This document shows positions 8,195-62,757 of a stretch of 64,000 nt of DNA, one piece after another. A program made the translations under genes and the position numbers. This stretch comes from Vitis vinifera (lineage: Eukaryota; Streptophyta; Magnoliopsida; Vitales; Vitaceae): contig NC_081808.1 of the NCBI RefSeq assembly GCF_030704535.1, forward strand, positions 25,779,501-25,843,500. The letters run 5' to 3'. The notes beneath the pieces are model-generated. The model worked only from the letters and a program-made list of their open reading frames with translations, did no database searches and was not told the DNA's origin. Position 1 is the first letter of the stretch, and each line of letters opens with the position of its first letter.

Positions 8195-9272
8195 ACTGTT
8201 TTCCGATGCCCAGACACAAATCTTATTCGGTCCGCTAGAAGCCTATAAAATATATTATCAACGCTTCTTGAGCACCATCGCCATCTGTTACATCATCCAT
8301 GGGTCTTCAGGCAATCAATTATTTAAGACGCCATAAACTCTCCTCTCAGTTGTTTCTCTCCACTTCATTCAGTCATAACTGATGGCTGACGCAACTTCAC
8401 CAAAATCATACCTATTTTCATTCAAGAAACCTGAATAAATTTTTCCCAAAACCTCCCCTCATTCCTTTCTCCCATGCATTTAGAAGCTCTAGAAATCTCT
8501 TTGGATTCATAAATTCATCAGGGAAAAAATTTATTTATTTAAAATATCAATATTATATTTATGGTTATAACTTATACCCCCACCAACACTTTTTGGGACG
8601 TGGCCTCAAAAGTCCAAAAGCATTAAAAACTCTTTCGGGTTTTATCTTATGGTTCAAGTTCAACCCAGTTTTGTTTTGTTTTTTTTTTAAAAAAAGGCAA
8701 TTTTATTTTGTCACGTTCGAGGGTCCTGTACACTGTTGCTTATCCGGTTTAACGCGTTCACTGGAAATAGTTTTTTTTTTTATAAAAAAAATAACGATTC
8801 TTTAGGAATTTTTGTATCACATAGAATGTATAGTATTTTTATAAAATAAATAAATAAACTATTATCTATTTTTGTGTTGTCTATTGTAATTTTGTTTTTA
8901 AATATAACTGATAAATATTTTTAAGAATCATCCTCAAAATCTGTTTTTTAATAATTATTTTAAAAATCATTGTAATAAAATAAATAAATAAATAAAAAGC
9001 AACCCCTTGGACCAGTTTGGAGATCCTTGAAATATTAATTTTATTCTCTGAGTCTTCAAAAATATTATAAAATGATAATCCCATGTTCAAATCCATGATG
9101 CATCGGGTAGAATAGAAGTAATCATATCTTAAGGAGCTTGTACAATACAAATTTTTAATATTTAATTTTATATTGACTCATTTGGTCTAATAGTCCATGG
9201 CATTTCCATTCCAATTGAAAGTTCAATAAAATTAGAGATTATATATGAAAGAGATATTCAACCAACTATCAT
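8195..9272. other. DGAT2 upstream region, AT-rich, no gene
   Basis: This holds the 5' flank of the minus-strand DGAT2 gene and then strongly AT-rich DNA up to the outer LTR insertion. I see no convincing ORF or RNA gene, and no clear TATA box could be assigned. Confidence 0.4.
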
Positions 9273-9761
9273 TGTAAATCTCAAACCCAATTTAGGGTAA
9301 AATCATAATTTAAAAATTATTAATTAATTAAAATAATTTAATAAGGGTAAAAATATCTTTTTGTATTAAAAACCCTTGTATAAATTAGATTTTTCTTACC
9401 TTTTTTCTTTAAAAAAATTATTTTACATAGAGATTAGAAAAATAAAAAAGTATAGGATTGAAAATTTGAAGGTTTAAGATTTAAAAATCAATTTTTCAGA
9501 TAAAATTTTCAATTCTTAAATTAATATTTTATATTGATTAATTAGTTTTGAACACTTTAGAAATTCTTTGAAATATCTTAATATTGATTAGAGTTCATTT
9601 AATTAATTTGTAAGTCAAAAATATTAAAAATTTATGAACATAGTTTTGATTTATTAATAGAAATTGATAGATTTTGATTACTCAAATGAATAGATTTAGA
9701 AAAGAAATAATAAATAAATAAAATAAGAGTAGCATGATTTTCTAGAACGGTGAAGAGAAAA

Positions 9762-10018
9762 TAATAATAATAATAATAATAATATAAATGTATGTTGTGT
9801 AGTAGAGGGTTTAAAAGAAAAAGAAAAAAGGATACGTGTGGGAAGGAAGAAACAAAAGAAGAAAAAGAAATGTGTTATTATTATTATTATAATAATAATA
9901 ATAGGTGTAGTTGGTGGCTTAGAGTAATGGTGTTGTTGGGTATTTGAAAGTAATAATAATAATAATATATAATGGGGTGTGGGAGTGGAATTGTGGTTAA
10001 GTGACAATTGAATAATGG

Positions 10019-10050
<32 letters not shown>
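9762..10050. repeat. Trinucleotide (TAA/ATT)n microsatellite blocks
   Basis: Four AAT/TAA blocks occur within 290 bp: about 9762-9783, 9876-9903, 9950-9968 and 10018-10050. They lie inside the left part of the outer LTR. The block at 9876-9903 switches from ATT to AAT and can form a hairpin. The minus-strand frames here (poly-I and poly-L) are translations of the repeat and not genes. Confidence 0.85.
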
Positions 10051-10218
10051 GTTTTTTGTGTAGGTGTAGACCCCTGTTAGGGTGAGGACCCGGGGAGAGT
10101 GGAGTGAGCTTCTTTTTATTATTTTTCATTGCATTCCCTTTGAAGTGTGGGGAGGACCCCCTCTCTAAGCATGAATCCCAGCTGCATGGGACGTGTAGCA
10201 GCAAGGGGGATGGCTAGC

Positions 10219-11406
10219 TGTCAGCTCCTTAGCCACTTGATTCCGACCTGAAGAAATAGGCCTCACGGGTAAGCCTTGCACCCATGAGAGCCTAAGCGAA
10301 AAACAAGGAAAGCCTGGAGGTTTGGTGGTTCAAACCCCAGGAGCTAAATATCGGGGATGCGTCAGGCAACCTGAGAAGATTTGGGAATGTCTTGTCAAGT
10401 GTATCTTGCATTAAAGATGATTGGCAGTTCAGGAGACTTGGTCGTCAGTATTGTCGGAGTTTGCTTTTTGATTGTGGACGGAAATGGATCCGGCGAATCG
10501 CGAGTATCTGACGAGCCAAGCTATCCGGGGAATCTAAATCGTTGGCCACGGATGTTCTCCGGATAAGCGTTACCGAAGGATCCGGACATGTCTGCCCGGG
10601 GAATTTGAATCGTCCTCCTCTCCCATCCGGTGACAGAATTCCGAATGAGAGATATCTGGAGAAGGTGGAACGTCGGCCGGACAGAATTCCGGATGTGAGA
10701 TATCCGGGTGGAATGAGTGTGAATTTCCGTCCGGGTGGAATGGGCGATGCCACGTGTCGCAAATGGCCGTCTGCTTGTCCAAGTGAGAGGGAGTCATGCG
10801 GCACTTTTTAGGGAGGATCCCACAGTGGGTGGTTGTGCAAGCAATTCAGGGCGGTTTTGGGCGGTTGCATAACCACCAAGGGAAAAACTGCAGGGTGAGT
10901 CTTTTAAAAGGGCTCCTGCAACCTTGAGATAAGAGAGAGGGAGAAGAGGGAAGGTGTCTCTAAATGCTTGGGATGTAAGCATTGCTCTCTGACTCGGGGA
11001 AGAGTCTTTTAAAAGGGCTCCTACAGCCTTGAGATGAGAGAGAGGGAGAAGAGGGAAGTGTCTCTGAATGCTTGGGATGTAAGCATTGTCCTCTGACTCG
11101 GGGAAGAGTCTTTTAAAAGGGCTCCTGCAGCCTTGAGATGAGAGAGAGAGAAAAGAGGAAAAGTAATCTCTGAATGCTTGGGATGTAAGCATTGCTCTCT
11201 GACTCAAGGAAACAATTTTGTATCTTATAATTGAGATTAATACAAGTTGGGAAGGATTTCCTGTAACCTCGTTGTGTCCCTGTTTCCTTTGGTTTGCTAT
11301 TATTTGTGTGCGTTTTGAGAAGATTGTGAAGAAAGGTTGGCTAAGGAAGGGTCCTTAGCACCGCGCACTAGGTGAAAAATTTAAGGTGATTTTCGAGGGT
11401 ATGACA
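10219..11406 (+). repeat. 5' LTR of the Ty3/gypsy element
   Basis: This 1188-bp LTR begins TGTCAGCTCC and ends GAGGGTATGACA just before the primer-binding site. The part from 10537 on aligns with the 3' LTR. It contains two tandem 48-bp units (start points acagaattcc at 10633 and 10681), where the 3' LTR has one, and three copies of a 104-bp unit, where the 3' LTR has four. The first 318 bp have no partner in the 3' LTR. Confidence 0.88.
10897..11210 (+). repeat. 104-bp tandem repeat, 3 copies (5' LTR)
   Basis: Three direct copies of a 104-105 bp unit containing agtcttttaaaagggctcct and atgcttgggatgtaagcatt. The cttttaaaag anchors are at 10901, 11006 and 11110. Because the unit sits in an LTR next to the 5' untranslated part, it may be regulatory; that is inference. 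Confidence 0.9.
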
Positions 11407-11408
11407 GT

Positions 11409-11420
11409 TGGTATCAAAGC
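11409..11420 (+). other. Primer-binding site (initiator tRNA-Met type)
   Basis: TGGTATCAAAGC lies two bases after the 5' LTR. Plant LTR elements primed by initiator tRNA-Met usually have TGGTATCAGAGC here; this copy differs by one base. It fixes the 3' end of the 5' LTR. Confidence 0.85.
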
Positions 11421-11431
11421 AAGCACCAGAG

Positions 11432-14400
11432 ATGGCTGGTGGTAGTGCAATGGAGGCCTTACGGGAGAGGATGACTCAAATAGAAGAGGCGTTAGGAGAA
11501 TGGCCACGTGAGGATGACACTATGGCTTCGTGGGCAGAGCACACCATGGGAGAAGTCCAAGTGCAAAGGAGTCTATTGGAGTCCCATGACAATTTCTATG
11601 AGAAGAAATTGGCTAAGTTCAAAACCTAGATGCAGTCCCGGATTGATGACTTCAAGGAGACCTTGCAGTCCTATGGAGAAGACATTGCCATCCTTAAGAA
11701 GGCGGTGTTGCAGGGATCTGCCTCAGGCTCTAAAGCCCCTTCCAAACTTCGAGTCCCAGAGCCTAAAGGCTTTAATGGCAACAGAAACACAAAGGAACTG
11801 GAGAACTTTTTGTGGGACATCGAGCAGTTCTTTAAGGCTACTCATGTTCCTGATGGCGAGAAGGTTTCCATCACCAGTATGTATCTGACTGGTGATGCCA
11901 AACTATGGTGGCGAGCCAGGATGGAGGACGATGCAGAGTCAGGAAGGCCCCAAATCACCACTTGGGAGACTCTGAAGAAGGAATTGAAGGATCAGCTCCT
12001 TCCCACCAACACGGCTTGGGTGGCCAGGGAGGCACTAAAAAGGCTCAGACACACCGGATCTGTGAGGGAATATGTCAAGTAGTTCAGTTCCTTGATGCTG
12101 GACATTAAGAACATGTCCGAGGAGGACAAGTTGTTCAATTTCATGTTTGGGTTGCAAGGATGGGCTCAGACGGAACTCAGGAAGCAAGAGGTTCGTGATC
12201 TCCCTACTGCCATGGTTGCAACAGACTGCTTGGTGGACTACAAGATGGGTGGTGCCATCTCCACCACATAGAGACCCAGGTCAGAAGGGGGCAAGAAGGC
12301 TAAGATTGAGGGCAATACTAAGAAGTCTGGGTGGATGAAGCAGAACAAAAAGCCTGTTGTAGAAGGAAAACCAGTAGAGAAAACCACAAAGGTTGTGCAG
12401 CAGACCACTCGGATGACAGGATGCTTCATCTGCAATAGCCCCCATCGAGCCAAAGACTGCCCCAAAAGAGAGAAGCTCTCAGCCCTGGTGACTGCAGATG
12501 ACAAGGGAGACTCTGACCTAGACACTCCTCCTAGAGTCAATCCCCTACAACTTCTGAACATGATTCATGGTGAGACCCCAGTCCAGAAGTCTCCAATGCA
12601 TATTCATGCAATAGTGAATGGTGTGCAGGTGAAGGCCTTGGTGGATAGTGGTGCCACTCATAATTTCGTGACCACCAAGGAAGCAGCCAGGTTGGGACTA
12701 AAGTTGGAAGAGGACACTAGTAGGATCAAGGCAGTAAACAGCAAAGCTCAGAAAATCCAAAGGGTAGCAAAGAATGTCCTCATGCAAATTAGTGACTAGA
12801 AAGGTATGTGTAGCTTATTTTGTGTACCTTTGGACGATTTTGACTTGATCCTTGGGGTGGACTTCCTATTGAGGGCTAAGGTGGCCCTGATCCCACACCT
12901 TGGTGGGTTGATGGTGTTGGAAGAGAAGCAACCTTGCTTTGTGCAAGCTTTGAGGGCAAAGGATGGTGGCAAGGGCCAACTTGAGATGCTGTCTGCTATC
13001 CAATTGAAGAAAGGATTGAAGAGGGGCCAGGAGACCTATGTTGCAGCCTTGATCGAGATCAAGGAGAGACAGTCTATGGAAGTCCCTGATTCAGTCGTCA
13101 GTATCCTTAAGGAGTTCAAGGATGTCATGCCTGCAGAACTCCCCAAGGAACTGCCACCACGGCAACCTATTGGCCACAAGATAGAGTTGATGCATGGAAT
13201 TAAGGCTCCAGCACAAGCCCCTTACAGAATGTCCCCTGTAGAGCTGCTGGAATTACGTAAGCAGTTGAAGGAGTTGTTGGATGCATGCTTGATCCAACTC
13301 TCAAGGGCCCCATATGGTGCACTAGTGCTCTTCCAAAAGAAGCATGATGGCTCTCTCCACATGTGCTTGGACTACAGAGCACTCAACAAGGTGACCATAA
13401 AAAACAAGTACCCGATTCCCTTGGCTGTTGAGCTATTTGACAGATTGTCAAAAGCTTCTTACTTCACCAAGTTGGACTTGAGATCAGGTTATTGGCAAGT
13501 GCGGATTACAATAGGAGATGAGGGGAAAACGACTTGTGTAACTCGGTATGGCTCATACGAGTTCCTGGTAATGCCTTTTGGATTGACCAATGCCCCTGCT
13601 ACTTTCTGTAATTTAATGAATGATGTTCTGTTTGACTATTTGGATGCATTCGTGGTAGTGTATCTAGATGACATTGTTGTTTATAGCAAGACACTAACAG
13701 AACATGAGAAACACTTGAGATTGGTGTTCCAGAGATTGAGGGAAAATAGGATTTATGTGAAGCCAAAAAAATGTGAGTTTGCTTAGGAGGAGATCATATT
13801 TCTAGGACATAAGATCAGTGCAGGACTGATCAGGATGGACAAGGGCAAGATGCAGGCTATTATGGAGTGGTTAGTCCCTACCAAAGTGACGGAGCTGCGG
13901 TCCTTCCTTGGCTTGGCCAACTACTACAGAAGGTTCATTAAGGGGTATTCAAAGATGGTGTCTCCCCTTACTGACCTATTGAAGAAGGACAATTAGTGGG
14001 ATTGGAGCATGCAGTGTCAGATGGCTTTTGAAAGCCTGAAGGAAGCCATCTCCACTGAGCTTGTGCTGTGGTTGCCAGATTTGGACTTACCCTTTGAAGT
14101 CCAAACTGATGCCTTTGATAGAGCTTTGGGTGGAGTCTTGGTGCAAGAAGGGCACCCTGTGGCGTTTGAGAGCAGGAAGCTGAACAATGCTGAGCAGAAG
14201 TACTCCACTCACGAGAAGGAGATGACTGTTGTGGTTCACTGCCTACAGTAGTGGAGACACTACTTGCTAGGGAGTATCTTTACAGTGGTCACTGACAATG
14301 TGGCCAATACCTTCTTCAAAACCCAGAAGAAGTTGAGCCCTAGGCAAGCATGGTGGCAAGAGTTTCTGGCCGACTTCAGATTTGAGTGGTTGCATAGACC

Positions 14401-15528
14401 AGGGAGACATAACACTGTAGATGATGCCTTGAGTAGGAGAGAAGTGATTGCCTACATCACAGCCCTCTCAGAAGTCATCTCGGACTTCAATGAGAAAATC
14501 AAATAAGCTGCGGAGTAGGATGCTGCATATGGCAAGCTGAAGCAGCAAGTGAAGGAGAGTGTGATTAAGAGGTATTGGCTAGAAGGTGACCTCCTTGTGG
14601 CAAAAGGAGGAAGATGGTATGTCCCTACAGGCGGCCTAAGAAAGGAACTGTTGCGGGAAACTCACGATGCGAAATGGGTAGGTCATCCCGGAGAAGAAAG
14701 GACTCTGGCCTTATTAGCCAGATCCTATTACTGGCCTAAGATGGGTGAGGACGTGCAGGCCTATGTGAAGTCTTGCTTGGTTTGTCAATTAGACAAGACT
14801 GAAAGGAAGAAGGCTGGAGGGTTGCTACAGCCCCTCCCCATTCCAGAGAAACCTTGGGAAAGCATCTCCATGGACTTCATCATTGGATTTCCAAAGGTTC
14901 GTGATTTTAAATCTGTCTTTGTTGTTGTGGATAGATTTTCAAAATATGTTGTTTTTATACCTACCCCTGATGCTTGCCCTGCGGAGGAAGCGGCTAAACT
15001 ATTCTTTAGCAACGTTGTCAAGCACTTTGGGTTATCGCGGGACATAGTCAGTGATCGGGATACAAGATTTACAGGCAAGTTTTGGGTTGAGTTGTTCAAA
15101 CTCTTAAGCTCAGAGTTGAAATTCTCCACATCCAACCATCCTCAGACTGATGGGCAGACAGAGAGGATCAATGCCTTACTAGAGGAATACCTCAGACACT
15201 ATGTGACGACAACACAGAAGAATTGGGTGGACTTGATGGACACTGCACAGTTGTGTTACAACTTGCAGAGAAGCTCAGCAACAGGGATGAGTCCCTTTGA
15301 GTTAGCCATTGGGGTATTGCCTCGAATGCCTCTGGAGGTGGCAAGGCAGAAAGCAGGAGGTAACAACCCTGCAACTTATAAGATGGCGCAGTCCCGACAA
15401 GAGATGCTTGATGAAGCCTAGGACAGTCTGGAGAAGGCAGCCAGACGCATGAAGAAGTATGCAGACCGGAATAGAAGACCCTTAGAATTTCAAGTTGGGG
15501 GACAGGGTCCTCCTGAAATTGACTCCTG
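11432..15528 (+). pseudogene. gag-pol polyprotein pseudogene (Ty3/gypsy)
   Basis: One reading frame runs from the ATG at 11432 and keeps the same frame throughout. Order: gag with a predicted coiled coil and a CCHC zinc knuckle (CFICNSPHRAKDC); aspartic protease (LVDSGATHNF); reverse transcriptase ([21 protein letters not shown]); RNase H (QTDAFDRALGGVL); integrase with its HHCC zinc domain (CLVCQ) and DDE core (VVVDRFSKYV, SDRDTRF, HPQTDGQTERIN). The frame is broken by TAG at 11627, 12080, 12269, 12797, 13784, 13994, 14249, 14516 and 15419 and by TAA at 14504. One extra G in the G-run at 15497-15501 shifts the frame in GDRVLLKLTP. The reading then stops because the sequence jumps into LTR sequence at about 15529, so the chromodomain region is absent. 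It is a dead copy with otherwise well-conserved residues. Confidence 0.92.
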
Positions 15529-16453
15529 AATCGTTGGCCACAGATGTTCTCCGGATAAGCGTTACCGAAGGATCCAGACATGTCTGCCCTGGAAAATTGA
15601 ATCGTCCTCATTTCCCATCCGGCGATAGAATTCCGGATGTGAGATATCTAGGTGGAATGAGTGTGAATTTCCGTCCGGGTGGAATGGGCGATGCCACATG
15701 TCGCAAGGGGTCGTCTGTGTGTCCAAGGGAGAGGGAGCCACGCGGCACTTTTTAGGGAGGATCCCATAGTAGGTGGTTGTGCAAGCAGTTCAAGGTGGTT
15801 CTGGGCGGTTGCATAACCACCAAGGAAAAACTGCAGGGTGAGTCTTTTAAAAGGGCTCCTGCAGCCTTGAGATGAGAGAGAGGGAGAAGAGGGAAAGTGT
15901 CTCTGAATGCTTGGGATGTAAGCATTGCTCTCTGACTCAAGGAAGAGTCTTTTAAAAGGGCTCCTGCAACCTTGAGATGAGAGAGAGGGAGAAGAGGGAA
16001 GTGTCTCTAAATGCTTGGGATGTAAGCATTGCTCTCTGACTCGGGGAAGAGTCTTTTAAAAGGGCTCTTGCAGCCTTGAGATGAGAGAGAGGGAGAAGAG
16101 GGAAGTGTCTCTGAATGCTTGGGATGTAAGCATTGCCCTCTAACTCGAGGAAGAGTCTTTTAAAAGGGCTCCTGCAGCCTTGAGATGAGAGAGAGAGAGA
16201 AGAGGAAAAGTAATCTCTGAATGCTTGGGATGTAAGCATTGCTCTCTGACTCAGGGAAACAATTTTGTATCTTGTAGTTGAGATTAATACAAGTTGGGAA
16301 GGATTTTCTATAACCTCGTTGTGTCCCTGTTTCCTTTGGTTTGCTATTGTTTGTGTGCGTTTTGAGAAGGCTGTGAAGAAAGGTTGGCTAAGGAAGGGTC
16401 CTTAGCACCGCGCACCAGGTGAAAAATTTAAGGTGATTTTCGAGGGTGTGACA
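15529..16453 (+). repeat. Truncated 3' LTR of the Ty3/gypsy element
   Basis: Aligns with the 5' LTR from aatcgttggcca onward and ends GGGTGTGACA at the target duplication ctagc. The first 318 bp of the LTR, the polypurine tract and the end of pol are missing, joined seamlessly after the LLKLTPE codons. It has one 48-bp unit and four 104-bp units. Confidence 0.88.
15840..16250 (+). repeat. 104-bp tandem repeat, 4 copies (3' LTR)
   Basis: Four direct copies of the same 104-105 bp unit as in the 5' LTR. The cttttaaaag anchors are at 15844, 15949, 16053 and 16157. The two LTRs therefore differ by one unit. Confidence 0.9.
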
Positions 16454-16921
16454 CTAGCCATGCTTGCTGAGATGATGAACAGGAAAGCAGGTTATGGCTT
16501 GCAAAAGAAGAGAAAAGAAAAAGAGGTGAGGAGAAGGTTACTGGATAGCAGGAGAGGAACGAGGTGAAAAAGGGCTTATTCTCAGTTGCTCCTGGTTATT
16601 ACTTCCTGGATTGGTATGCGGATAGCTAGTCACTTATACGTTTTTTTTTTTGCTAAAAACTAAGTTGTTGGTGAACTCGGGTATTGATTCTTCCTGCTTT
16701 GTTTATGCTATCATGCTTATGTGTTGCTCTGTTTCGGTGATATTTTTTTGCCGAAAATCTTGACATTGTTAACATTGCCTTTAAAATCTATTTTGGTGTC
16801 TCTCCTGGCTTGCAAGCTTAATGTTGTTTGTTTCAAATCACTTGCCTTTTTTTTTGTCTTTGTTTGTTTTTCTTTGCTTTTGTTGTGAACTCCCCTATTC
16901 TGGCCTCTTTTCTCCCACCCC

Positions 16922-17450
16922 TTGGAGCTAGTTGTAGCTGACGAACCCCTAAAGAGGAGAACTGAATCAGTGCCAATCCAAAGCGTGTCTTACGCTATGA
17001 AACCGAAATACCAATCCCCACCCAGCTCGGAGAATCTTCAACCCCAAGCACCATCGCTGAAGTCGCCGCTCCCATGGCGATCGAGGCAGCCCGAGTCTGA
17101 CTGGGACAGCGCAGAGAGTCGCTTGATGTGGACTCGAGAAGGCATGCAGTACGTGAAAGACACACCTTCAATCTCGCTTGTGTCGTATTCGACCCGAGTG
17201 GCGCCATTGCTAGAGGGCCAAGTCACCGTAGAGACAGAGGCGGAGGCGGAGGAGGCAGTGGGGAAGGAGTACGTGGACGCGCCAAGAAGGCGATGCGCGT
17301 CGGCTGCCATTCTCTGACAGTTATTCCGACGTGGTGACGTCGCCGCTGCCGCCGTGGGGAGGTGGCGAAGGTACTGAAGCCAGGCGCGGGGAGGGGCAAG
17401 CTGTGAAGAAGATGAAGTTTGGGCTTGGGCTTGAGTTGGGGCATTAGGCC
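16922..17450 (+). pseudogene. GC-rich gene-like fragment inside the Tat-like LTR
   Basis: This GC-rich block stands out from the AT-rich LTR around it. The plus strand has an open frame to 17317 (SRLMWTREGMQYVKDTPS, TRVAPLLEGQVTVE). Changing frame after the stop continues plausibly (DSYSDVVTSPLPPW, then AVKKMKFG, then a stop), which suggests a coding relic with one frameshift. I do not recognise the protein. It could be a captured host exon or an old exon-like part of the LTR. The minus strand is also open over 17038-17631, so base composition alone could explain the frames. Confidence 0.35.
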
Positions 17451-17639
17451 CAATTTTGTGATGGAGATAGGTTTTGGACTTACCTATGTTGGTTTTTGGT
17501 TTTGGGCTTGCCCATGATGGCTTTGGTTTTGGGCTTAAGTTGGAGCCCAGGCCCAAGTTTGCTGATAGAAGGCCCCATTGCTCCTTATGTTGGCCACTCT
17601 CATGGCCCAAGTCCATGATGAGTGAACCCATTTAGCTAC

Positions 17640-19200
17640 TTCATGTCTAAATAAGTTTTAAATCTCTAATCTTAGTAAATTATTAACTTATTCATACATT
17701 TTCATTTCTTTTTTTTTTATCTTATTTTATCTTCACCAATTTAGTTAACTCAAACTTAAAGACAATTAAAAGACAAAGTATTATTGTTAATTATATTGTT
17801 ATCTCGAAATTTATACTATTCAATTTCACTAGCTTGAACATTATGATCGTTAAATATTATTATTATTTCGTATGTATCTATTTATCATCTTTTAAAATCT
17901 CATTCGTTAAAGCCTAATTCTAATTCTTCAAAAATCCAACATCCCCAATTTAATTTTTAATCTCGAAATTCATACTATTCAATCTCGTTCGTTTAAATAT
18001 AATGTTTGTCAATTATTATTATTATTATTATTTCACATGTATCTATTTATCATTTTTTTAAAATCTCATTCATTAAAGTTAAATTCTAATCCTTCAAAAA
18101 TATCATGCTTTAATTTAATTCTTCAAATACTTGTTTAAATCTTATTTTCATAAATCGAATCATTATCCCATATTTATTAGTTATTCAAAGTTAAATCCAT
18201 AAAAAAATCTCATGTCTTAATTTAAATTTTCAAATATTCGTTTAAATCTTATCTTCATCAATTAGAATTATTATCCTATATTCATCTATCTATCTAGTCT
18301 AATCCTTCAAAAATCCTATGTTTTAATTTAATTCTTCAAATATTTGTTCAATTCTCATTTTCATCCATTAGAATTATTTATCCCACACTATCCAGCTATT
18401 TAAAGTCCAATTCTTCAAGAACCCAACGTTCTAATTTAATTTTCAACCCTAAAAATTCCACTATTCCTTTTTATTCATTTAAATGTTATTTTCGTTAATT
18501 AGTATTATTATCCTATATTAGTTTATTTATTTAAAATCCAATTCTTCAAAGGTCCAATGCCCTAATTTCATTTTCCAAGTCCTAAAAATTCCACTATTCG
18601 TCTAAATGTCATTTTCGTTAATTAGGAATTATTGTCTCATATTTATTTATTCAAAGCCTAATCCTTCAAAAATCTAATGTCATAATTTAATTTTCAATCC
18701 TAAAAATTCCACTATTCGTCTACACGTTATTTTCGTCAATTAGAAACTCTATACTTGTTTATCTCTTTTAAAAATCTCAATCATTGAACTTAATTTTCAA
18801 CCCTAAAAATTCCACTATCCTTTTTTATTCATTTAAGTGTTATTTTTGTCAATTAGTATTATTACCCTATATTAGTTTATTTATTTAAAATCTAATTCTT
18901 AAAAAACCTCATGTCTTAATTTAATTTTTCAATTCTAAAAATTCTACAATTCGTTTAAATGTTATCCTCATCAATTAGAATCATTATCCCATATCTGTTT
19001 AAAGTCCAATCTTTCAAAAACCCCATGTCATAATTTAACTTTCAATCCCAGAAATTCCATTATTCGCCTAAATGTTATTTTCAGTAATTAGAATTCTTAT
19101 ACCAAAGATCCCATCCCTGAATAAATTCTTAAGTTTTCAATATCTAAATTCACATCTTCAAATCTCTAAAATCCCAATTTTCTTTAAATAACCTTCGAGA
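17640..19200. repeat. AT-rich degenerate tandem-like region of the Tat-like LTR
   Basis: A loosely repeated phrase (variants of ttcaaaaatccaat, taatttaattttcaa, cctaaaaattccactatt, ttcgtcaattag) recurs roughly every 100-150 bp. The same kind of sequence, reverse complemented, fills about 50940-52150 in the LTR of the minus-strand relative. It appears to be an LTR-internal expansion and not coding. Confidence 0.6.
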
Positions 19201-19836
19201 CTCCAATTTTTCAAATGAATTTCAAAAATCCGATTTTCTCTCGAATAGCTTTAATTCCATTTTGGTCTTCAAACAATCTTTTACTCCTCTTGATTTTAAT
19301 AAGCATGAACGAATTTTTCATAATTCCAAATAATGGAATTTATGAGATTAATTCATGTAAAATAAACGGGTTTTGGTGGGAACCCAACATAAGTGAATTT
19401 ATAATTGATTGATTGTTTGATTGATTTAATTGACATGCATGATTGATGTTATTCTGCTTTATGACATGATCGAAATTATTTCTTAATTGTGCATTAACCT
19501 CACTTTTTGATAAGCTTATTGTGGTTCGTCGCCCAGGTACGTATCTATTCCCATTCTGGTCTTTCTATATACATGTTTTGATTCTCATATGTGCATGATA
19601 GTTCCGGGTATTCATTGTTTTCCTCATCAATTGCTACATCAGCTCCATTTTATTAGTAGGGACCCGTTTCTAGGGACTTAGAGGGGTGCTACGGTCTTTA
19701 CCATATCTTTCCAATAAGTAACCTGACCCCCGAGCCCGATTCGGTTTTTCGCAAACCATCTTTTCCGAAATAAGAAGTCACACTTAGGGTTTTCTTTCTT
19801 ATTTTGTTTACCCTTTAAAAATAAAACAAAAATAAG

Positions 19837-19847
19837 TGGCGACTCCA
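19837..19847 (+). other. Primer-site-like motif inside the Tat-like LTR
   Basis: TGGCGACTCCA lies 99 bp before the LTR end. The same 11 bases form the core of the true primer-binding site just outside the related LTR at 50236-50246, and recur inside the other two LTRs at 50338-50348 and 61357-61367. Confidence 0.7.
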
Positions 19848-21300
19848 AGTCATTTTCTTAACAAATAAAAATCATTTTTTCAAATCAAATTAACATCGAG
19901 CATGTCATCGAGTGGAAAACGTATGAGCCGAAATGCAGGGTCCATAGTAGGTTTTAATTTAATTTAAGTATATAAAGAAATAAATAGGGAGGGTAAGATT
20001 AGGAAATAAAATGAATTTTCCAATAATTTGGAAACTCATTAAATTAATTTATTATTGTTTAGTAAGTTAAAAATAATATTGGGCAGTAATAATATTAGCA
20101 AGAGAAATTAATTAGGATTCCTAATACTAAATAAAATATTTTTAGGATTATCAAATTTTTACCAATTGTATATGATATTATGTTAGGTGATGAGTAAATA
20201 CTTCAAATTTTTTAGCACTTCTTCAAGATAAGGGAAATTAATGTAGATTTTTATAAAAGAAAATAATTTTTTTTATATTGTATTTTGAAATGTGTAAAAA
20301 TATTATTTTTATTTTTACTCATGGATCAAATATGTGTTTTTGTATGAAAAATACATTTGAGAATTTTCTTTGTTTATGAAAAATGAAAAATGAAATTTTT
20401 TGGAGATATGATATTTTGTTTTGCAAGTTTGAATTAATGAAATAAAGTATTTGACTTTGATTCCTATGACCCTAGTAAACGGAATATAATTATTGACATT
20501 TCTATGGCCCTAATCAACAGGTTATAATTGTTGACCTTATGACTCTAGTCATTGGGTTATAATAGTTGACCTTATAGCCCTAGTTAACGGGTTATAATTG
20601 TTGACATTTGGTTTTGTTCACCTTAAATGAAACAAATTTGAAACTAGTTACTCAATTGTGAAGTCTCATCAAATTGGGCACCATTTGTCATACAATAATC
20701 AGAGTAAATATATTTTGAATATATTTGATTTGGTAGTTTTGAAATGGATATGAGGAAGTTTTGTTGAAAAGTTTGAATGTATTAGTATTTTGAACTCAAA
20801 AGTTTTTATGAAAATAAGTATATGTTATATCTCTTATTTGCAAGCATGATTGAAAATGTTTGATCTATGAAACTGTATTAATGTTTCTTATTGGGCCTTG
20901 AGTTCGTCTCCTTTTGTTGATAATCTTTCAGGTAACCTCAGTTCGGGTGATGAGTGACCGTTAAGAGGGAAATTTGGCTTTATTAAGACATTTGTTTAAA
21001 CTCTCTTTATTTTGGACATTATTTAGATGTTAAAACTTAATTCTTGTTTGAATTATGTTGATTTTAAAGTTATTTGAACAATAACACTTTAGTTGATGTA
21101 TTAGTTTTTTGTTTTTTTTTTTAAAGTTGATACTTGGAGATTTTAGAATTTTTTTCATACTATTTCGAATAGGAATTTGGTAATTGGTAAATTTTCAATT
21201 ATAATACGAATGTTTATGTCGTTTCCACTTTGAGCCTTTAGGCTTGAGGTATGAAATGACCGTCATACACTTGGAGTAGGTTTTGGGGCGTGACAATCAT

Positions 21301-27814: not shown

Positions 27815-27898
27815 GGAAGAGAAATGGATACTAACTGGAGGCACAGGAGTTGAGGGAGTGTGGCTTTGGGAGCTGAGACACACTCAGACCGCGTGGAG

Positions 27899-32092: not shown

Positions 32093-36346
<4,254 letters not shown>

Positions 36347-50229: not shown

Positions 50230-50246
50230 CCCCAGTGGAGTCGCCA
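50230..50246 (-). other. Primer-binding site of the Tat/Ogre-like element
   Basis: TGGCGACTCCACTGGGG on the minus strand, three bases beyond the LTR end. By memory it resembles a tRNA-Arg-type primer site; it was not checked against a tRNA. It fixes the orientation and LTR boundary. Confidence 0.65.
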
Positions 50247-50337
50247 TTTTGTGGACCCCACATTTCTGCTCATGCGCTTCCACTTGATGAAGAACTTCCT
50301 TTTATTTGAAAAATGATTTATTTTTTAGAAAATGACT

Positions 50338-50348
50338 TGGAGTCGCCA
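50338..50348 (-). other. Primer-site-like motif inside the LTR
   Basis: TGGCGACTCCA on the minus strand, 88 bp before the LTR end, identical to the first 11 bases of the true primer site at 50236-50246. Confidence 0.7.
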
Positions 50349-50939
50349 CTTATTTTTGTTTTATTTTTAAAGGGTAAACAAAATAAGAAAGAAAACCCTA
50401 AATGTGACTCCTTATTTGGAAAAGACGGTCTGTGAGAAACCAAATACAGGTTCAGGGGTCAGGTTACTTATCGGGAAGGTACGGTAAATACCATAGCACC
50501 CCTCTAAATCCCTAAAAACGGGTCTCTATTTAATAAGGTGAGACAGATGTGACAATTGATGAGGAAATCAATGGATACCGATGAAATAATCAAATAATAT
50601 AATGAATCATGCATCGGAATAAACGAAATGGGAATGAGATCATACCTTAGCAACAATTAATAGGGTGTTATCATGGAAACGAGGTTAGCTCAAATATAAA
50701 ATTATCACATGCATATCAAAAAGTAAGACAAAGATCGAGCAATAGTTATTAAGCATAACAATTGGCAATTAAAAGAGAAAACTCATATGTAGGGCCCCCA
50801 CCAAAGCCCAATTTATTTTGCACGAATTAGTTTCACAAATTTCATTATTTTGGAATTATGAAAAATCCGTTCTTACTTATTTAAAAATCAAGAGAAACGG
50901 AAAAATTATTTTAAAAATCAAAGAAAAATTTGTGAAGGT

Positions 50940-52150
50940 GCTTGCCTGAAAGAAAAAGGCAACAAGTTTATTAAAAACAAGATTTTTGATGACCTTGAAC
51001 CCTAAGGAAAAACGAAGGGTGGTAGAATTAAAGAAATATTTGAAAATTGGAGGGAAATTAGAATTGCTTGAAAAACTGAAATTTGAAAATTGGAGTTTCG
51101 AAAATTACCTTTAAGAATTGGAATTTTGGAAATTAAATTTGAAAGAAATTGGAATCTTGAAGATTATTTGAGAATTGGAGTTTTGAAAATTAAGTTTAAG
51201 AATTAGAATTTTGGAAATTAAATTTAAAAGAAATTGGAATTTTGAAAATGATTTGAGAATTGGAGTTTTGGATATTATTTGAAGATGGAATTTTAAAAAT
51301 AAACAAATAAATAAAATAATAATAACAACAATAATAATAAACTAATGTGAAAATTGGAATTTCTGAACTTAGAAATTGAATTCGGAAATTGGAATTTTGA
51401 AGAATTATTTAAAAATGGAATTTTAAAAATAAATTAATTAATAAATTAATAATAATAACAAAAATAATAATGATTAAATAAATAAATGTGAAAATTGGAA
51501 TTTCAGAAACCAGGAATCAAATTTGGAAATCAGAATTTTGAAGAATTATTTAAAGGTGAAAATTTAGAAATAAATAAATGAACAAAATAATAATAACGAA
51601 AATAATAAGGATTAAATAAATAAATGTGAAAATTGGGATTTTGGAAATTGGAAATTAAATTAGGAAATTGGAAATTTGAAGAATTATTTAAAGATGGAAT
51701 TTTAGAAATAAATAAAAGAATAAAATGATAATAACAAAAATAATAATGATTAAATAAATAAATGTGAAAATTGGAATTTTGGAAAATTATTGGAAAATGG
51801 AAATTTTTAAAAATTGAATTTGGAAATTGGAATTTTGGAAGATTATTTGAGAACAGTATTTCGGAAAATTAAGTAAAAAACTGAAATCTTGAAAAATTAT
51901 TCTGAGAATGGAATTTAAAAATAAATAAATAAATAAAATAATAATAATAAATAAAAATTAAAAAAAATCTTGGAAAATTGGGATTTTGAGAAATTTTTTT
52001 TTTTCATATAAAAAAAATGAATTTGAGAATAGAATTTCGGAAGATTAAATTTCGAAAATCGGAATCTTGGAAAATCATTTTGAGAATGGCATTTCGAAAA
52101 TTTAAATTTCGGAAATTGAAATGTTAGAAAATTATTCTAATATCAAAATA
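50940..52150. repeat. AT-rich degenerate repeat of the LTR
   Basis: Repeated variants of gaaattggaattttgaaaat and aataaataaaataataat. It corresponds, reverse complemented, to 17640-19200 in the related solo LTR. Non-coding. Confidence 0.6.
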
Positions 52151-52479
52151 TGAAGAAATAGTAAAAAAAAAAAATGGTTTGTGGTGATCCTCATTTGCAA
52201 GACTTCTCCACGTGTTCAAAGTGGCAACCAACCTATTCCCTATGCTGCCAGCATACCAAAGAATGTCACAAGACTACTTCCTCTATTACAATAATGTCAT
52301 TCAAACCCACTTTCCATGCAAATCTATATCATACCCACCATGCACTTCCTGAGAGCACCACAAACCCATTTTTTTTTCATGAAAACAAACACCACAATGC
52401 TACCACCTCCTTACCTATCCGCCATTCTGACTACCATGCGCATGGAGTATTCATTGGTGGAATGGGGGTATATGGTAGT

Positions 52480-53310
52480 GAGAGAAATGGGTTCGGGTGA
52501 ATGAGGTGATGAAATAAAGTCATGCACATAGAGATTAACGTCGGATGGAGTCATGGGTAGTGAGAGAAATGGGTTTAAGGATTTGGTGGGTGTGAAGTTA
52601 TAGGTTTGATGGAGGATAGGAGGTTAGTGAAAATGGGTTTAATAGATATGAAAGATGGGTTAGAGAGCATTAAAGAAATGGTGATGTGCATGGACGGTTA
52701 GGGAGGATGAGGTGGTGAGTTTGGGTGTGAGGGGTGGTGAGCATGAAGGATGGAAAACCGGTGGGTATGAATGGGAAGGGGTGGTGAGATAAATGGATTT
52801 ATAGGAAATAAGGGAAGTGAACTTGTGGATGATGAATGGTAGGGGTGGCGGGTTGAGTAAGTGTGAAAGAAGTTGTAAGTGGGAGCGCAGTGCCGGGTTG
52901 GATGGGTGGGTTTGAAATATATAAGGAATGAAAATGTGGAGATGACCATGCGTGTAAAGCTCCATGCACGTGGAAAGATAGAGAACAAGGTGGGTGAGGA
53001 AGGAAGGGTAGAACAGGTAATGGTAGGTAATGGGTTTTGCAGTGAAATGAATGAAAAAAATGATGAAAGAAATGGGTTAGGGGTGCGGAATGATTAGACA
53101 GGTATAAAGAGACAGTGGTGAAATGGGATGAATTTATATGCATGTGGTGGGTACGGGGAGTGTGAATGAGGGGTAGTGAGATAGATGAGTTTTTAGGTTC
53201 ATAGGGAATGGGTTAGTGAGAGAAGTGGATTAGTGGGCATTTGAAGAATAGTGGTATGGGTATAGTTATGGGTATGGCGGGTGAAAGATGGCCATGGGTA
53301 GAAGATGACC
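52480..53310. repeat. Purine-rich (GGGTTAGTGAGA-like) degenerate repeat in the LTR
   Basis: The plus strand shows many scattered variants of gaaatgggttagtgagag and ggtggtgagtgtgaa. Minus-strand frames rich in H, P, F and L are translations of this. It lies within the 4-kb LTR and is not coding. Confidence 0.5.
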
Positions 53311-54264
53311 TCTTAGGAGCCAAAAATGCATTAAATTCCGAAAACTTTCCTTCAGTAGACTAACCAAGAGGTGTATCTGAACCATTCAGAAAAACCTTGT
53401 TGCTGTAGACATCTTCACCACTTTGAGCACTTGGGACTATTGGTGCATGTGTGGAACTACCGAAAGAGTAGTCACTCAGACCCAGAATTCTCAACTGTTA
53501 TGAAAAGTGACCCTCATGAAGTTTTCTCAGAATCACCCCCAAACAAGATGGCCAACCCAAATGAGATCCTCACACCCCAGACAGAAAGAGGGGAATGAAC
53601 ATGGAAGAATAAAAACGTAAAAACAGAGTATGTACCCAACCCTATGTCATGAACTGTCAAAGAGCTAGAAGTCGATGGAATCCGAAGTAAGTAAGAGCAT
53701 GGTTTTGATACATTAAGTCAAAAAAAAAAAAACAAAGCATTTGATGCTATCAAGAGGAGCTAAAAACACCCAAAATAAATCTAAAAACAGAACAAGCATA
53801 CCCAGAATCTCACAAAACAAACGAGTGGCCTATGACATCTACACCAATCAGCAAATGAACTAAAAAAAAAATAGCAAGAACTAGAATAAAACGGTATGAA
53901 ATGAGAAAATACCAGAGAATGATGAAATCATACCTGGACCCTACTGACTAGCTCATCTCCTACTTCTCCTTCCCTTTTTCTTTTCTCCATTTTATTTCCC
54001 CCCCGTTCCTTCCAGATCTTACCCAAAAGAACCCCCTCTTGTCAGCTCCCACCCGTTCCACTGTTCTTGGCTCATCAGTTCCTACCGGCTCCCCTGCCTG
54101 CTCAGATCATCATTCTCCCTCCTGAAACTCCAACCACCACCATGGCAAGGTGGTCGCATCCAAGGCTACACGTCCCATGTAGCTGAGCATGGGAGTAGTC
54201 CCCCACTTCTCCAAAAAAACCAAAGTTTTTCTCCTTAAGGTGGCCAGCTCAAAAGGGGTCTACA

Positions 54265-57671: not shown

Positions 57672-59763
57672 TCATTTTTCCTTCCATAACCAACTTTGAG
57701 CACACATTAAGGCTTCCAAACTATCTGGATGAAGCTTACTGCAATGTTTTGATACCACCCTACCACCCGTGCTAAAGGCTGACTCAAATGCAACTGTAGA
57801 TACCGGAATAGCATAGATATCATGAACAATCATCTGCAAAGTCGGATATTTTATACCATTTGTCTTCCACCAACTTAAAACATCAAAATTTGAAGTCCTT
57901 GGCAGAATAGACTCCTCTAAGTAATAATCTAACTCCGACTTCGTATGACTTTCTCCAATTGTACTATGAACAAATAAGTCAAACTTTGAAAGAGGATCTT
58001 GTTCATCATAATTTAACTCCTAAATAGTTGAACCTGATGAAGTACCATAGGATAAAGTTTTTTGCCCCAACTTAGACTTTGATTGATACTCACAAAGCAA
58101 CTCATAACACATTCCACTGATTTTTTCTATCTCATTTGAAGCTTCAGACCCATACATTAGTGGAAAGTAAAACTCTAAAATCTTTATCTTGTATCTTGGG
58201 TCAAATATAGCTGCTATTGCCATCATAATATGACACCCACTCCAATACTTGTCAAACTTTTGCAACATACTTGATGCCATCGTTTTCACAACATCATTTG
58301 AGCAAATCAACCAATCATACAATGCATCTTTGATCTCTCACACTTTGATGAAGAAAGTATTTGCAGTGGGATAATTTCGTCCTGAGAACAACTGTAGACC
58401 CTCAATTTTGTCCCTTTAGCACATGTCTTTAAATTTGTTTTCAGTGCTCCACAGTAACTCCTTAGTGGCCCATTATTACTCGTATAACTTACCCTTTTCT
58501 GAGCCACCTCGGAGATTTTGGTTGAGGAATTATCTGACCCCTTATTGTGACTCTTGGCAGCCCTAATTTAGACTTAGGCTTTTTTTCGTTCATTTTTAGG
58601 ATAGCTTTTAGGTACACTTGGCCCATTAGGCACCGCTCTAGGCCCATTTAGACACACTTGGCCCAATAAGCACTTTTAGACTCACTTTTTGTGTGACTTG
58701 CATGGCCCGCATAGGATTGACTATTTTATTCAATTATTTTGTTTTACTTTATTTATTTTTATTTTATTTTAATCTTTGATAGGTTGCAAGATTGTGAACT
58801 CTTTTTGTTTTTATTCTCTCTATTTTCGTTTTTCTATTGTTTGATAAGAGAATAGGGGCTGCTATTCAACTCTCACTAAGGTATGTGCGCTCAAAAAGGT
58901 AAGAGAAATATTTTATGAGGAAAAAGGAATTAATGTGGCTGCATACATATGGTAAGAGAAGATCCTGCATGAGAGGAGAGGAGTATTCTGATTTTTGAAA
59001 AAGGAAGGGAAATAGAAGAAAGGAAAGTGGATTCTTTTGAGCATATTGAGTTTGAGAGGTTGATACGAATAAAGGAGAAAAGGAAAAGAACAATGGGGGC
59101 ATGAGAGGATCGTAAAAAATGAGGCATAGAAGAGAAGGACTTGGAATACGTATAGAGAGGGAGAAGATTGGTGGACGGGAAAAGGTGCAGCAGCTTGGAA
59201 CCAAGCAATTGGAGAAGAGAACGTGCAGGTACGTTTCCAGATTTTTGCTATATCACCATTTAGTTTCAATCTTTCCTGACTTCTTAGTTTTCTGAAGATT
59301 CATTCTTGTCGTTTGGTGTGGACGCAAAGGCCACAATTTGATTAGATGAGATTGGTTTGCTTACATGTTTATGTTATTTCAATATTCCTTTTAATGTCTT
59401 TGGTTCCATCCGAAAGCAATCTGAATATAAGTTTACCTTTGAATTTGATGCTATGGGTCTTGTCCCCGTTTATGTCCCAATCTGACTTTAAAATACCCAT
59501 CGACTGTCTTCTTTTCCCTTGTTTTCTTTTCTTTTCTTTCTTGGTCTTTTTGCGTGCTTCTATATCTACGTTTCTTCCCTTTATTTACCTTGGTATTCTC
59601 GGATATGGAGACCATGAGCATTCCGAGAAAGTTGGGAACTTGATAAAGGCTGTGTAAAACGGGTTTTCTTGGAGTTAAACAAATGCAAAGGTTACCATAA
59701 TTCTTGAAGGTTCTTAGTTTACGGCATCGCTCATTCCACCTGGACAGAAATTCTCACCAGTTC

Positions 59764-60370
59764 CACCCGGATGTCTCACATTCGGAATTCTGCCCGGCCA
59801 ACGTTCTACTCTTATCCGAATGTCTCATAGCCGCGATTCTATCCGGCCGACATCTCATTTTCTCCGGATGTCTCACAACCGCAATCCTATCTAGCCAACA
59901 TCCCACTTTCTCTCGGATGTCTCACAGTCGCAATCCTATCTGGCCAACATCCCACTTTTTTCGGATGTCTCACAGCCGCAATCCTATCCAACCAACATCC
60001 CACTTTCCCCCGGATGTCTCACAGCCGCAATCCTATCCGACCAACATCCCACTTTCTCCGGATGTCTCACAGCCGCAATCCTATCCGGCCAACATCCCAC
60101 TTTCTCCGAATGTCTTACAGCCGCCATCCTATCCGGCCAACATCCCACTTTATCCGGATGTCTCACAACCGCAATTCTATCCGGCCAACATCCCATTTTC
60201 TTCGGATGCCTCACAACCGCAATTCTATCCGGCCAACGTTCCACTCTCTCCAAATGTCTCACAGTCGTAATTCTATCCGGCCAACATCCCACTTTCTCCA
60301 GATGTCTCACAGCCGCAATTTTATCCGATCGACATCCTACCCTCTCTGGATATCTCACAGTCGCAATTTC
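59764..60370 (+). repeat. 48-bp tandem array, about 12-13 copies
   Basis: Direct copies of a 48-bp unit beginning ccggatgtctcacagccgca. The period is a multiple of three, so open frames run through it on both strands (plus strand: PDVSQPQSYPANIPLS per unit); these are not genes. The unit is the reverse complement of a 48-bp motif in the LTR of the Ty3/gypsy element at 10633-10728. Confidence 0.92.
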
Positions 60371-61356
60371 TCGGCCTCACTTCATGGCAACCTTGCTATA
60401 CACACCTTCTCCTCTATTCACTTCTTTGATTGGGAACTTATTGTTTTAAATTGAATTTTTGAACCATTGTTCAACTAAACATTCTCAACTTTGAAAAATT
60501 CATCTTTAGACCTTCTTTAGGCAATAAAATCCAGACTTCGACACCCTTTGCTGCCATTTTCCTTCCGGCATGCGTTTTCACTATTTTATTTGATTTTCAA
60601 CTGATTTTCTTGATTTTCCCAAGCATGAACAAACTTCATGATTCCAAACAATGGAATTCGTTGAATCAATTCGTGCGAAAGTAATATGGACTTTGGTGGG
60701 TGGTCCTACATTCTTGATATCTTCACTAATATTGATTTTAAAGATGATTGTTTGGTATTTAATTGACTTTGATTTCTCTTGGAGATATGCTTGAATTTGT
60801 TTTATATTTGTTATTGGGCTAACCTTGATTCCCATAGAGGAGTACTAGCTTGCTATCCAGGTACGCTCTCTTCTTATCTATTTTTTTAGAACTCTATGGA
60901 CTTGTATGCTATTGGTGACTACATCCATGCATGATGTGATTCTTGGGTGTTTAAATAAATATTAGATTTGCCCGGATAAGACATATGTTGCGTGATAGAT
61001 TTCTACACTAACTCTTATGTTTTATGATAGCGCTTGAGAAATCGTTCAGGTGCGCACTTCGACTCTCTCTTATGGTTTGTTTTCTTTTTAGGCATGCAAT
61101 ATTTGAAATCACCTAGCCTACTTAGGTACCCATAATTAACTGATTAATGGCCACACTTCCCTTAACTTTGTTAGTAGAGACCTTTATAGGGCTTAGAGGG
61201 GTGCTACCTTTTAAAGGTACCTTCCCAATAGGTAACCCGATCCCTGGACTTAGACTAGGGTTTTTCAAAGACATGCTTTTTTCAAAAATTTTGGAGTCAC
61301 ATTTTAGGGTTTTTCTTTCTTGTTTTATTTTCCCTTTAAAATAAAAATAAAATAAG

Positions 61357-61367
61357 TGGCGACTCCA
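61357..61367 (+). other. Primer-site-like motif inside the solo LTR
   Basis: TGGCGACTCCA, 72 bp before the LTR end; third occurrence of the motif in this LTR group. Confidence 0.7.
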
Positions 61368-62757
61368 ACTTTTTCCAAAAATTAATTTAGCGAGTCTCGC
61401 CGATCGAGTGGGGGCGCATGTGAAAAACGCGGGTCCACAACAACTCTATTATGTTGTAAAACAATTTCAATCTTCCACATATTTCCTTTGCCATATTCCA
61501 TTCTTCCTCTAATGGCACAACCATGTAGTATTTTTCACGTTGCTTCAAACGTGGGATCTTTATATGTTATAGCAATTGATAACATCAAGTATGTGGAATT
61601 CCATCGTGTCTTACAATCAAGACTTAACTTCTTATTGCATGGAATACGCAATTAGCGAGCTGCATCTTCAAACTTTTCCATTCTTGATGGGGTTGCCGAC
61701 CAATATGTAACACTCTCAAGAATTTTTTCAATTTCTACTTCAATGAAATCCAAACCTTCCTTAACAATTAAGTTCAACACATGTGCCGCACATCGCATGT
61801 GAAAATTTTTTCCATTCAATAAGAGTGAATCGCTTGAAGATAATTTCTCCACCAAGATATTGATCATTCCATCATTACTTGAGCAATTATCCACAATGAA
61901 TGTAGATACTTTTCTATCCATATTTCAATCCAACAAGAAATCCATTAATACATCTGAAAGAACTTCTTTTGTGTGTGGAGGAGGCACATAAACAAACCTA
62001 CATTAAGAAAAAAAACATATCATTAACACAAACAATATCATTAAATGATCAAATAAAAAAACACTTTGGAAGTAAAAAAAAAATAACATAACTAACCTTA
62101 CAATATGATGTTGCAGTAACCAAGACTCATCAATGTAATGTACAGTGATAGTCATGTAGCCTTTCTTTTGATTTGATATCCACATATCAGTTGTGATAGC
62201 AACTCTACTTTGAAGTTTCTCTAAGTAGCTATTCATCTTATCTTTCTCAACCTCATAAATCTTCATTATATCACCCTTAATCGTATTACGGGAAACAATC
62301 TTAAACAAGGGTTGGAGACTAGTAGCAAAATCTCTAAACCCCACATGGTCAACGATTGAAAGTGGGTACTCATGCAATATATTTGCACGTGCAAGCTTCT
62401 CTCTTGATATTTCTTTATCAAAGGTAAAACCATCAGTTTGAACTTTTCCATGACCTTTTCTCTCTACTGCCAATAATTGTTGCCTAATATCAACATTTCT
62501 TCATTTCATGTACCTATCTATGTGTACATGTAAATGTTTTGTCCCATTCTTGCTATCGGCCTTGAGCTTTCCTTTACAATGCTTACAATAGCATAATCTT
62601 GTCCATTTTCTATGATTTTATCAAAATCATTCCAAACAGCCGAAGTCAATTTTCTTCTTTTAGATCCCAATGCTCCATTAGTAGTTGAAGTATTGCTTGT
62701 AATTGGAGTTGAACCCCCACTTAGCATGAAAATTTTTTCCCCTTCTTTTGATGTCAT

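What the first reader, a model, noticed from the sequence alone, without database searches (positions are those of the whole stretch)
9268..21300. Three-level nested LTR insertion with all three target duplications intact
atcat flanks 9273-21295, gtagg flanks 10065-19946 and ctagc flanks 10219-16453. The order of events is therefore fixed: outer LTR element inserted and reduced to a solo LTR, then a Tat/Ogre-like element inserted and reduced to a solo LTR, then a Ty3/gypsy element inserted. Two LTR-LTR recombinations can be dated relative to each other.
Basis: seen in the sequence. Interest (0 to 1): 0.75.

Follow-up and report, generated by a model that had tools for sequence, protein, structure and literature searches.

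The report
Three nested plant retrotransposons, one carrying gene piece
Three plant retrotransposons sit one inside the other, which fixes the order in which they jumped in but not the order in which the outer two shrank, and the middle one carries a piece of what looks like a plant gene inside its terminal repeat.

Summary
The nest is real. With termini fixed by other copies in the same genome (G000, 495.6 Mb; probably grapevine, by inference), the outer LTR is 9273-21295 (TSD ATCAT), the middle LTR 10065-19946 (GTAGG) and the inner element 10219-16453 (CTAGC). Relatives of the outer and middle LTRs read straight through the two insertion sites. So outer inserted first, then middle, then inner.

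'Tat/Ogre' for the middle family rests on PBS, gag and LTR form, not on a pol domain. The inner element is damaged: its 3' LTR lacks about its first 315 bp.

The middle LTR contains a 329-bp piece of what reads as a host gene's first exon (16941-17269). Two other middle-type LTR sequences hold parts of the same exon, and two hold pieces of other host genes: PADRE (L052) and a TPT-type transporter (L025). The family's LTR seems to have a variable zone that took up host exons more than once. Captured genes in LTR elements are known; none inside an LTR appeared in my limited searches.

The parts
9268..9272 (.). outer TSD, first copy (ATCAT)
9273..10064 (+). outer solo LTR, left piece (last 5 bases are the first GTAGG)
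10065..10218 (+). middle solo LTR, left piece (last 5 bases are the first CTAGC)
10219..11406 (+). inner Ty3/gypsy element, complete 5' LTR with about three 104-bp tandem repeats
11409..11420 (+). inner PBS-like TGGTATCAAAGC just after the 5' LTR
   Evidence: initiator tRNA-Met type is recalled
11630..12082 (+). inner gag fragment, PF03732
12272..12799 (+). inner protease region, PF13975
12800..13786 (+). inner reverse transcriptase region, PF00078; the pieces of gag-pol lie in one frame, broken by several stop codons
14519..15421 (+). inner integrase region, PF17921; PF00665 just under its cut-off (30.6 against 32.6 bits)
15526..16453 (+). inner 3' LTR, lacking about its first 315 bp, fused to non-LTR sequence that follows the integrase region; four 104-bp repeats
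16454..19946 (+). middle solo LTR, right piece (first 5 bases are the second CTAGC)
16941..17269 (+). piece of the likely first exon of a host gene (82% to C12:2662058-2662375) inside the middle LTR
17801..19100 (+). tandem repeats of 106-166 bp shared by other LTRs of this family
19947..21295 (+). outer solo LTR, right piece (first 5 bases are the second GTAGG)
21296..21300 (.). outer TSD, second copy (ATCAT)
50250..54264 (-). second LTR of the middle type, followed by PBS 50229-50246; agrees with the termini
58393..61439 (+). third LTR of the middle type, a solo LTR with TSD ACAAC (58388-58392 and 61440-61444)

Best explanation
Three successive retrotransposon insertions, each into an LTR of the previous one. 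(1) An element of a family about 6.3-6.6 kb long, with ~2.1 kb LTRs and an iMet-type PBS, inserted at ATCAT. (2) A Tat-like element with an LTR of about 3.6 kb inserted at GTAGG into an LTR of the first. (3) A Ty3/gypsy element with ~1.2 kb LTRs inserted at CTAGC into an LTR of the second, then lost the start of its 3' LTR and what lay before it by an internal deletion. The outer and middle elements were each reduced to one LTR by LTR-LTR recombination at some time after their own insertion; when, relative to the later insertions, is not determined. The middle LTR most likely arrived already carrying a 329-bp piece of a host gene's first exon. Shown: termini, TSDs, uninterrupted relatives, truncation, gene piece. 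Inferred: LTR-LTR recombination as the cause of the solo LTRs, deletion timing, loss of the PPT, and how the gene piece was taken up (template switching during reverse transcription, or DNA repair inside an LTR, then spread by retrotransposition).
For: Exact TSDs at all three levels and in 10 of 12 relatives with family-fixed ends. Left and right pieces of the outer LTR are contiguous in 8 of 8 LTRs read across that point (L039 lacks a few bases there; L016 gives two LTRs of one element, and L019 and L041 are probably the two LTRs of one), and of the middle LTR in 8 of 8. Solo relatives exist for both families: outer L014, L015, L020, L021; middle L025, L029, L030, L031. Full-length outer relatives L016 and L017 have matching ends. 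Inner LTR pair K2P 0.0587, 39 transitions and 7 transversions over 824 sites. The 5' LTR keeps the U3 start that the 3' LTR lacks; both U3s are copied from one template (established retroviral mechanism), so the loss came after that copying. Right flank 21296-22100 has one match in the genome, itself. Gene piece; its left junction is shared with L052 at 95% over 100 bp, 33 of them LTR.
Against: No empty site of the outer insertion could be read, as only one genome is held. No 3' end of an inner-family relative was examined. The middle LTR ends in TA, not CA. No pol of the middle family was seen. The recombination that makes a solo LTR leaves no separate mark here. No relative was compared across the inner deletion, so the loss of the PPT is inferred.
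Confidence: 0.95

Rival explanations
1. A stricter version of the above: the outer and middle elements were each already solo LTRs when the next element landed.
For: Compatible with every observation; solo LTRs with TSDs were found in both families (4 outer, 4 middle among the loci tested).
Against: Nothing requires it: recombination after the later insertion gives the same final structure in about half of cases (inference). No intermediate was found either way.
Confidence: 0.45
2. The outer or middle interval is not a single LTR but a chance pair of 5-mers around unrelated repeats.
For: Freely scanned 5-mer pairs are common (87, 94 and 42 candidates); AAATG flanks the 50250-54264 LTR on both sides although a PBS follows it.
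Against: Family termini coincide and relatives are contiguous across the insertion points.
Confidence: 0.02
3. The exon in the middle LTR is a later insertion (for example a Pack-type DNA transposon or a repair patch) in this one copy, not cargo of the LTR.
For: Most middle-type LTRs held lack it; the zone differs between copies.
Against: The same left junction, including LTR sequence, occurs at 95% in L052 on another contig, and L054 holds a longer copy of the exon with this family's tandem repeats about 270 bp further on.
Confidence: 0.12

Closest known systems
Nested LTR retrotransposons with solo LTRs, as ordered by REANNOTATE (PMC2672092; passages read)
   Same: Nested insertions ordered in time; complete elements dated by LTR divergence; ages of solo LTRs bounded by the complete elements they sit in.
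   Different: TSDs were checked here at every level; the paper states that REANNOTATE does not check TSDs. Solo formation is not ordered by the nesting.
Plant Ty3/gypsy Tat clade, Ogre/Retand (PMC6317226 and PMC11963269; passages read)
   Same: Tandem repeats, 5-bp TSD, gag by Pfam, PBS TGGCGACTCCACTGGGGA in an in-window relative (tRNA-Arg type recalled).
   Different: LTRs of 2.9-6.1 kb here (six relatives), against 315-1,194 bp in the Retand survey; tandem repeats lie in the LTR, not between pol and 3' LTR; archaeal RNase H not seen because no pol was held.
Gene capture by plant LTR retrotransposons: maize (PMC2774510, passages read), rice and sorghum (PMC3726574, passages read), Bs1 (told in PMC7264820 passages)
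   Same: Pieces of host genes carried by LTR retrotransposons; maize has 425 intact elements with gene fragments from at least 189 captures.
   Different: Here the pieces lie inside the LTR, so a solo LTR keeps them and a full element should hold two copies. The maize survey found no element with fragments of more than one standard nuclear gene; L052 has two (Bs1 also has several). In the passages I saw, the maize and rice/sorghum papers do not say whether any fragment lies in an LTR.
LTR segment exchange: BARE-2 (told in the review PMC13317346, passages read) and the QuinCent motif of RLG_Quinta (PMC11302176, one passage read)
   Same: Foreign sequence in an LTR, explained by template switching or gene conversion.
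   Different: There the donor is another retrotransposon family; here it is a protein-coding exon.

Membership tests
LTR retrotransposon solo LTR (outer) | family LTR ends, exact TSD, no internal region on either side | tested here: met
LTR retrotransposon solo LTR (middle) | family LTR ends, exact TSD, no PBS after the 3' end | tested here: met
Tat/Ogre lineage (middle) | archaeal RNase H domain and RT/INT phylogeny | not tested
   no pol of this family was held; L037 gives a gag match only
Tat/Ogre lineage (middle) | lineage-typical PBS | tested here: inconclusive
   TGGCGACTCCACTGGGGA after the 50250-54264 LTR and similar after L027; assignment to tRNA-Arg and to Ogre is recalled
Ty3/gypsy (inner) | gag, protease, RT, integrase in that order, with a PBS after the 5' LTR | tested here: met
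Ty3/gypsy (inner), intact element | two complete LTRs, open gag-pol | tested here: not met
   3' LTR truncated; gag-pol broken by several stops
Ty3/gypsy (outer) | coding domains | tested here: inconclusive
   the full-length relative L016 has only a weak gag fragment, 22.8 bits against a cut-off of 24.1; looks non-autonomous
Gene-capturing LTR retrotransposon (middle) | host exon inside the element, shared by copies at other loci | tested here: met
   other pieces. That C12:2662058 is a gene rests on its open frame, no annotation was available

The most novel reading that the evidence does not exclude
The middle family's LTR has a variable zone between a conserved ~200-bp start and a tandem-repeat block, into which pieces of unrelated host genes (an unnamed gene whose N-terminus looks mitochondrial, a PADRE protein, a TPT-type transporter) have been taken up repeatedly and then copied by retrotransposition, so that LTRs act as exon shufflers and solo LTRs leave the exons behind as permanent cargo.
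Probability: 0.4. Interest if true: 0.65.

Novelty: new member of a known kind. Interest (0 to 1): 0.42.

Why it matters
The nest itself is ordinary plant genome history and a good worked example of what nesting can and cannot date. The exons inside LTRs matter more: LTRs carry promoters and outlive their elements as solo copies, so an exon in an LTR is placed near a promoter, should be doubled in each full element, and is kept after the element shrinks. If this is general in the family, it is a testable route for exon shuffling.

Tried and rejected
TSD plus TG/CA ends as sole proof: rejected, too many chance pairs. Ordering the recombinations from the nesting: rejected by logic. Looking for an intermediate (full-length outer element with one interrupted LTR) among the fetched loci: L015 is an interrupted solo LTR and L039/L040 is unclear; none found, and no wider search was made. 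Empty site or paralog of the outer insertion: the right flank matches only itself; the left flank has 25 other short, partial matches and no full-length one. Rfam and tRNA scans of the window gave nothing. Pfam gave no match for the window's own gene piece (two frames), nor for two proteins each from L026 and L027. A sign of purifying selection in the window's gene piece: dN/dS 0.26 against the gene, reached by 0.1 to 2.1% of neutral simulations; 21 of 39 window-only changes synonymous, P 0.001-0.019 by model. Part may predate capture or be gene-side change, the absence of stops is unremarkable (11-28%), and L054's copy is decaying, so no function is claimed. The GC-rich segment of L027 was searched as a further capture: about ten other long copies, no single parent recognised, so it is not counted.
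Full report
Observation. A free scan shows that such pairs around TG...CA or TG...TA ends are common by chance (87, 94 and 42 candidates for the three levels), so the duplications alone do not prove the nest. The window's own assembly is held as G000 (495.6 Mb, 21 contigs; window at C4:25779501-25843500); size and contig number suggest grapevine, which is my inference.

Outer level. The last 396 bases have 40 other hits in the listing, 39 of them ending within 2 bases of 21295 (40 of 1032 candidates were scored). The first 488 bases have 40 other listed hits (40 of 596 scored): 3 start at base 1 and 37 at base 7-11, because relatives read TGTAATGCCCC or similar where this copy reads TGTAAATCTC; their TGT lies at the same point. 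L014, L015, L020 and L021 are solo LTRs with exact TSDs, L016 and L017 full-length elements of 6.6 and 6.3 kb with exact TSDs. A PBS-like TGGTAT(C/T)A follows a 5' LTR in L016, L017, L018 and L019. Eight relatives' LTRs were read across the point where the middle element sits here, all without it; L039 lacks a few bases there. They come from about six elements: L016 gives two LTRs of one, L019 and L041 probably two of one. Of the ten outer loci, L022 and L023 matched only in part and were not used for TSDs, and L018 and L019 were not tested for TSDs. The L016 internal region gives only a weak gag match, just below Pfam's cut-off, so the family looks non-autonomous.

Middle level. The 149-bp left piece has 23 other hits, 19 starting exactly at 10065. 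Two further LTRs of the type lie in the window: 50250-54264 (minus), followed by TGGCGACTCCACTGGGGA, and 58393-61439 (plus), a solo LTR with TSD ACAAC. L025, L029, L030 and L031 are solo LTRs with exact TSDs; L028 matches 4 of 5; L027 is a 5' LTR with a PBS; L024 and L026 were fetched but no right end was found in the stretch held. Alignments stop 2 bases before the right end; the last two bases were set by reading. Eight of eight middle LTRs read across the inner insertion site. Downstream of L027 a gag is present (PF03732, E 6.7e-12); no RT was seen. The Tat clade is distinguished by an archaeal RNase H (PMC6317226, passages read), so Tat/Ogre remains a lead.

Inner level. Domains in the order gag, protease, RT, integrase make it Ty3/gypsy. 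Six of 41 other listed hits begin exactly at 10219; the other 35 share the LTR only from position 127 or later. Four loci of the first kind and four of the second were read: the second kind has different sequence before that point, so the inner element belongs to a subfamily with its own U3 start. The 3' LTR begins only at the equivalent of 5' LTR position 316, directly after non-LTR sequence that follows the integrase region. As U3 of both LTRs is copied from one template in reverse transcription, the loss followed that step; that a PPT went with it is inferred. The LTRs differ by K2P 0.0587 (824 sites, 39 transitions, 7 transversions, 153 gap columns); the 509-site tail gives 0.0346 and its last 201 sites 0.0524. 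With a recalled rice rate of 1.3e-8 per site per year, 0.0587 would mean about 2.3 million years, perhaps too young for a woody plant; the transition excess fits decay of methylated cytosines.

What the nest dates. Insertions: outer, middle, inner. The inner date is a lower bound for the other two. Recombinations: each follows its own insertion, nothing more. If the middle element entered the 5' LTR of a full-length outer element, a crossover to its right keeps it; if the 3' LTR, a crossover to its left keeps it. REANNOTATE (PMC2672092, passages read) orders insertions, and bounds the ages of solo LTRs by the complete elements they sit in.

Gene piece in the middle LTR. A search with 16900-17640 found C12:2662058-2662375 (82%) and C16:4115836-4116170 (84%) matching 16940/16941-17269 and no other part of the query, and C3:20952019-20952118 (95%) matching 16908-17007 (40 of 276 candidates scored). 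The C12 place (L055) reads as a host gene: an ATG and an open frame of about 217 codons; that the frame ends at an intron, and that the N-terminus looks mitochondrial, are my readings. L054 on C16 holds 456 bp of that exon at 91% and, about 270 bp on, this family's tandem repeats; part of its upstream sequence matches the LTR of L029 at 94%. The LTR ends of L054 were not located. L052 on C3 shares 100 bp with the window at 95%, 33 bp of LTR and 67 bp of exon, and then runs into a second host gene piece, PADRE (PF14009, E 4.9e-14), whose likely parent is C7:22269686-22269994 at 92%, with a paralog at 76%. L025, a solo LTR with TSD ATAGG, holds 753 bp of a TPT-type transporter gene (PF03151, E 3.3e-11); C16:16164154-16164907 matches just that part contiguously at 97% and is the likely parent, C10:16533855-16534571 matches at 76%, and C15:20160168-20160703 (99%) is a further copy that includes LTR, about 110 kb from L025, so it may be a local duplication. 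Of 12 LTR sequences of this type compared besides the window's split copy and L054, two (L025, L052) have a Pfam-recognised host piece; proteins of four of them were scanned. In 8 of the 12 (L024-L029, L031, L053) a long stretch after the first ~200-500 bp is not shared with the other copies held; L030 lacks it, L052 shares parts with the window, and the two in-window LTRs share only their 3' parts. L024 shares almost nothing after 200 bp and may not be a whole LTR.

Literature. Searches 'gene capture / LTR retrotransposon / gene fragment / within the LTR' (1 paper), 'LTR retrotransposon / captured gene / Ogre / LTR' (7 papers), 'transduplication' with four others (8 papers) and 'retrotransposon / gene fragment / inside the LTR / host gene' (126 papers with three of four terms, 12 listed). 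I then read passages of PMC2774510, PMC3726574, PMC7264820, PMC8282616, PMC11302176, PMC11963269 and PMC13317346. They show captured genes in LTR elements and exchange of LTR segments between families, but no host exon inside an LTR. That is no proof of absence in print; supplements were not read.

Change after the self-check.

Noticed in passing
window 16941-17269; L052:1105-1546; L054:1382-1840; L025:5170-6156: Pieces of different host genes lie inside LTR sequences of the middle family, between the LTR start and the tandem repeats.
   Followed up: partly
window 59767-60367 and 10649-10751: A 48-bp minisatellite in the third middle-type LTR resembles, in reverse orientation, a stretch of the inner element's 5' LTR (84% over 104 bp), two otherwise unrelated LTR families.
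   Followed up: no
window 10219-10344: The first 126 bp of the inner U3 are found in only 6 of 41 other listed hits and contain GGTTCAAACCCC, which looks like a tRNA-type B box (recalled); four other copies read have different sequence there.
   Followed up: partly
window 50245-50249 and 54265-54269: AAATG flanks the 50250-54264 LTR on both sides although its PBS follows directly: a chance TSD-like match, a warning against 5-mers alone.
   Followed up: yes
window 6143-8180 and 24096-25712: Parts of these stretches on either side of the nest are alike (81% over 451 and 71% over 629 columns), in the same order and orientation: perhaps an older local duplication.
   Followed up: no
window 11407-15525: The stop codons that break gag-pol look like C-to-T decay of methylated DNA; my reading of the sequence, not tested.
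   Followed up: no
window 26912-27883, 34097-36346, 46197-48741: Host-gene-like frames: VIT family, subtilase (PF00082 in 34097-34681), lectin receptor kinase.
   Followed up: no
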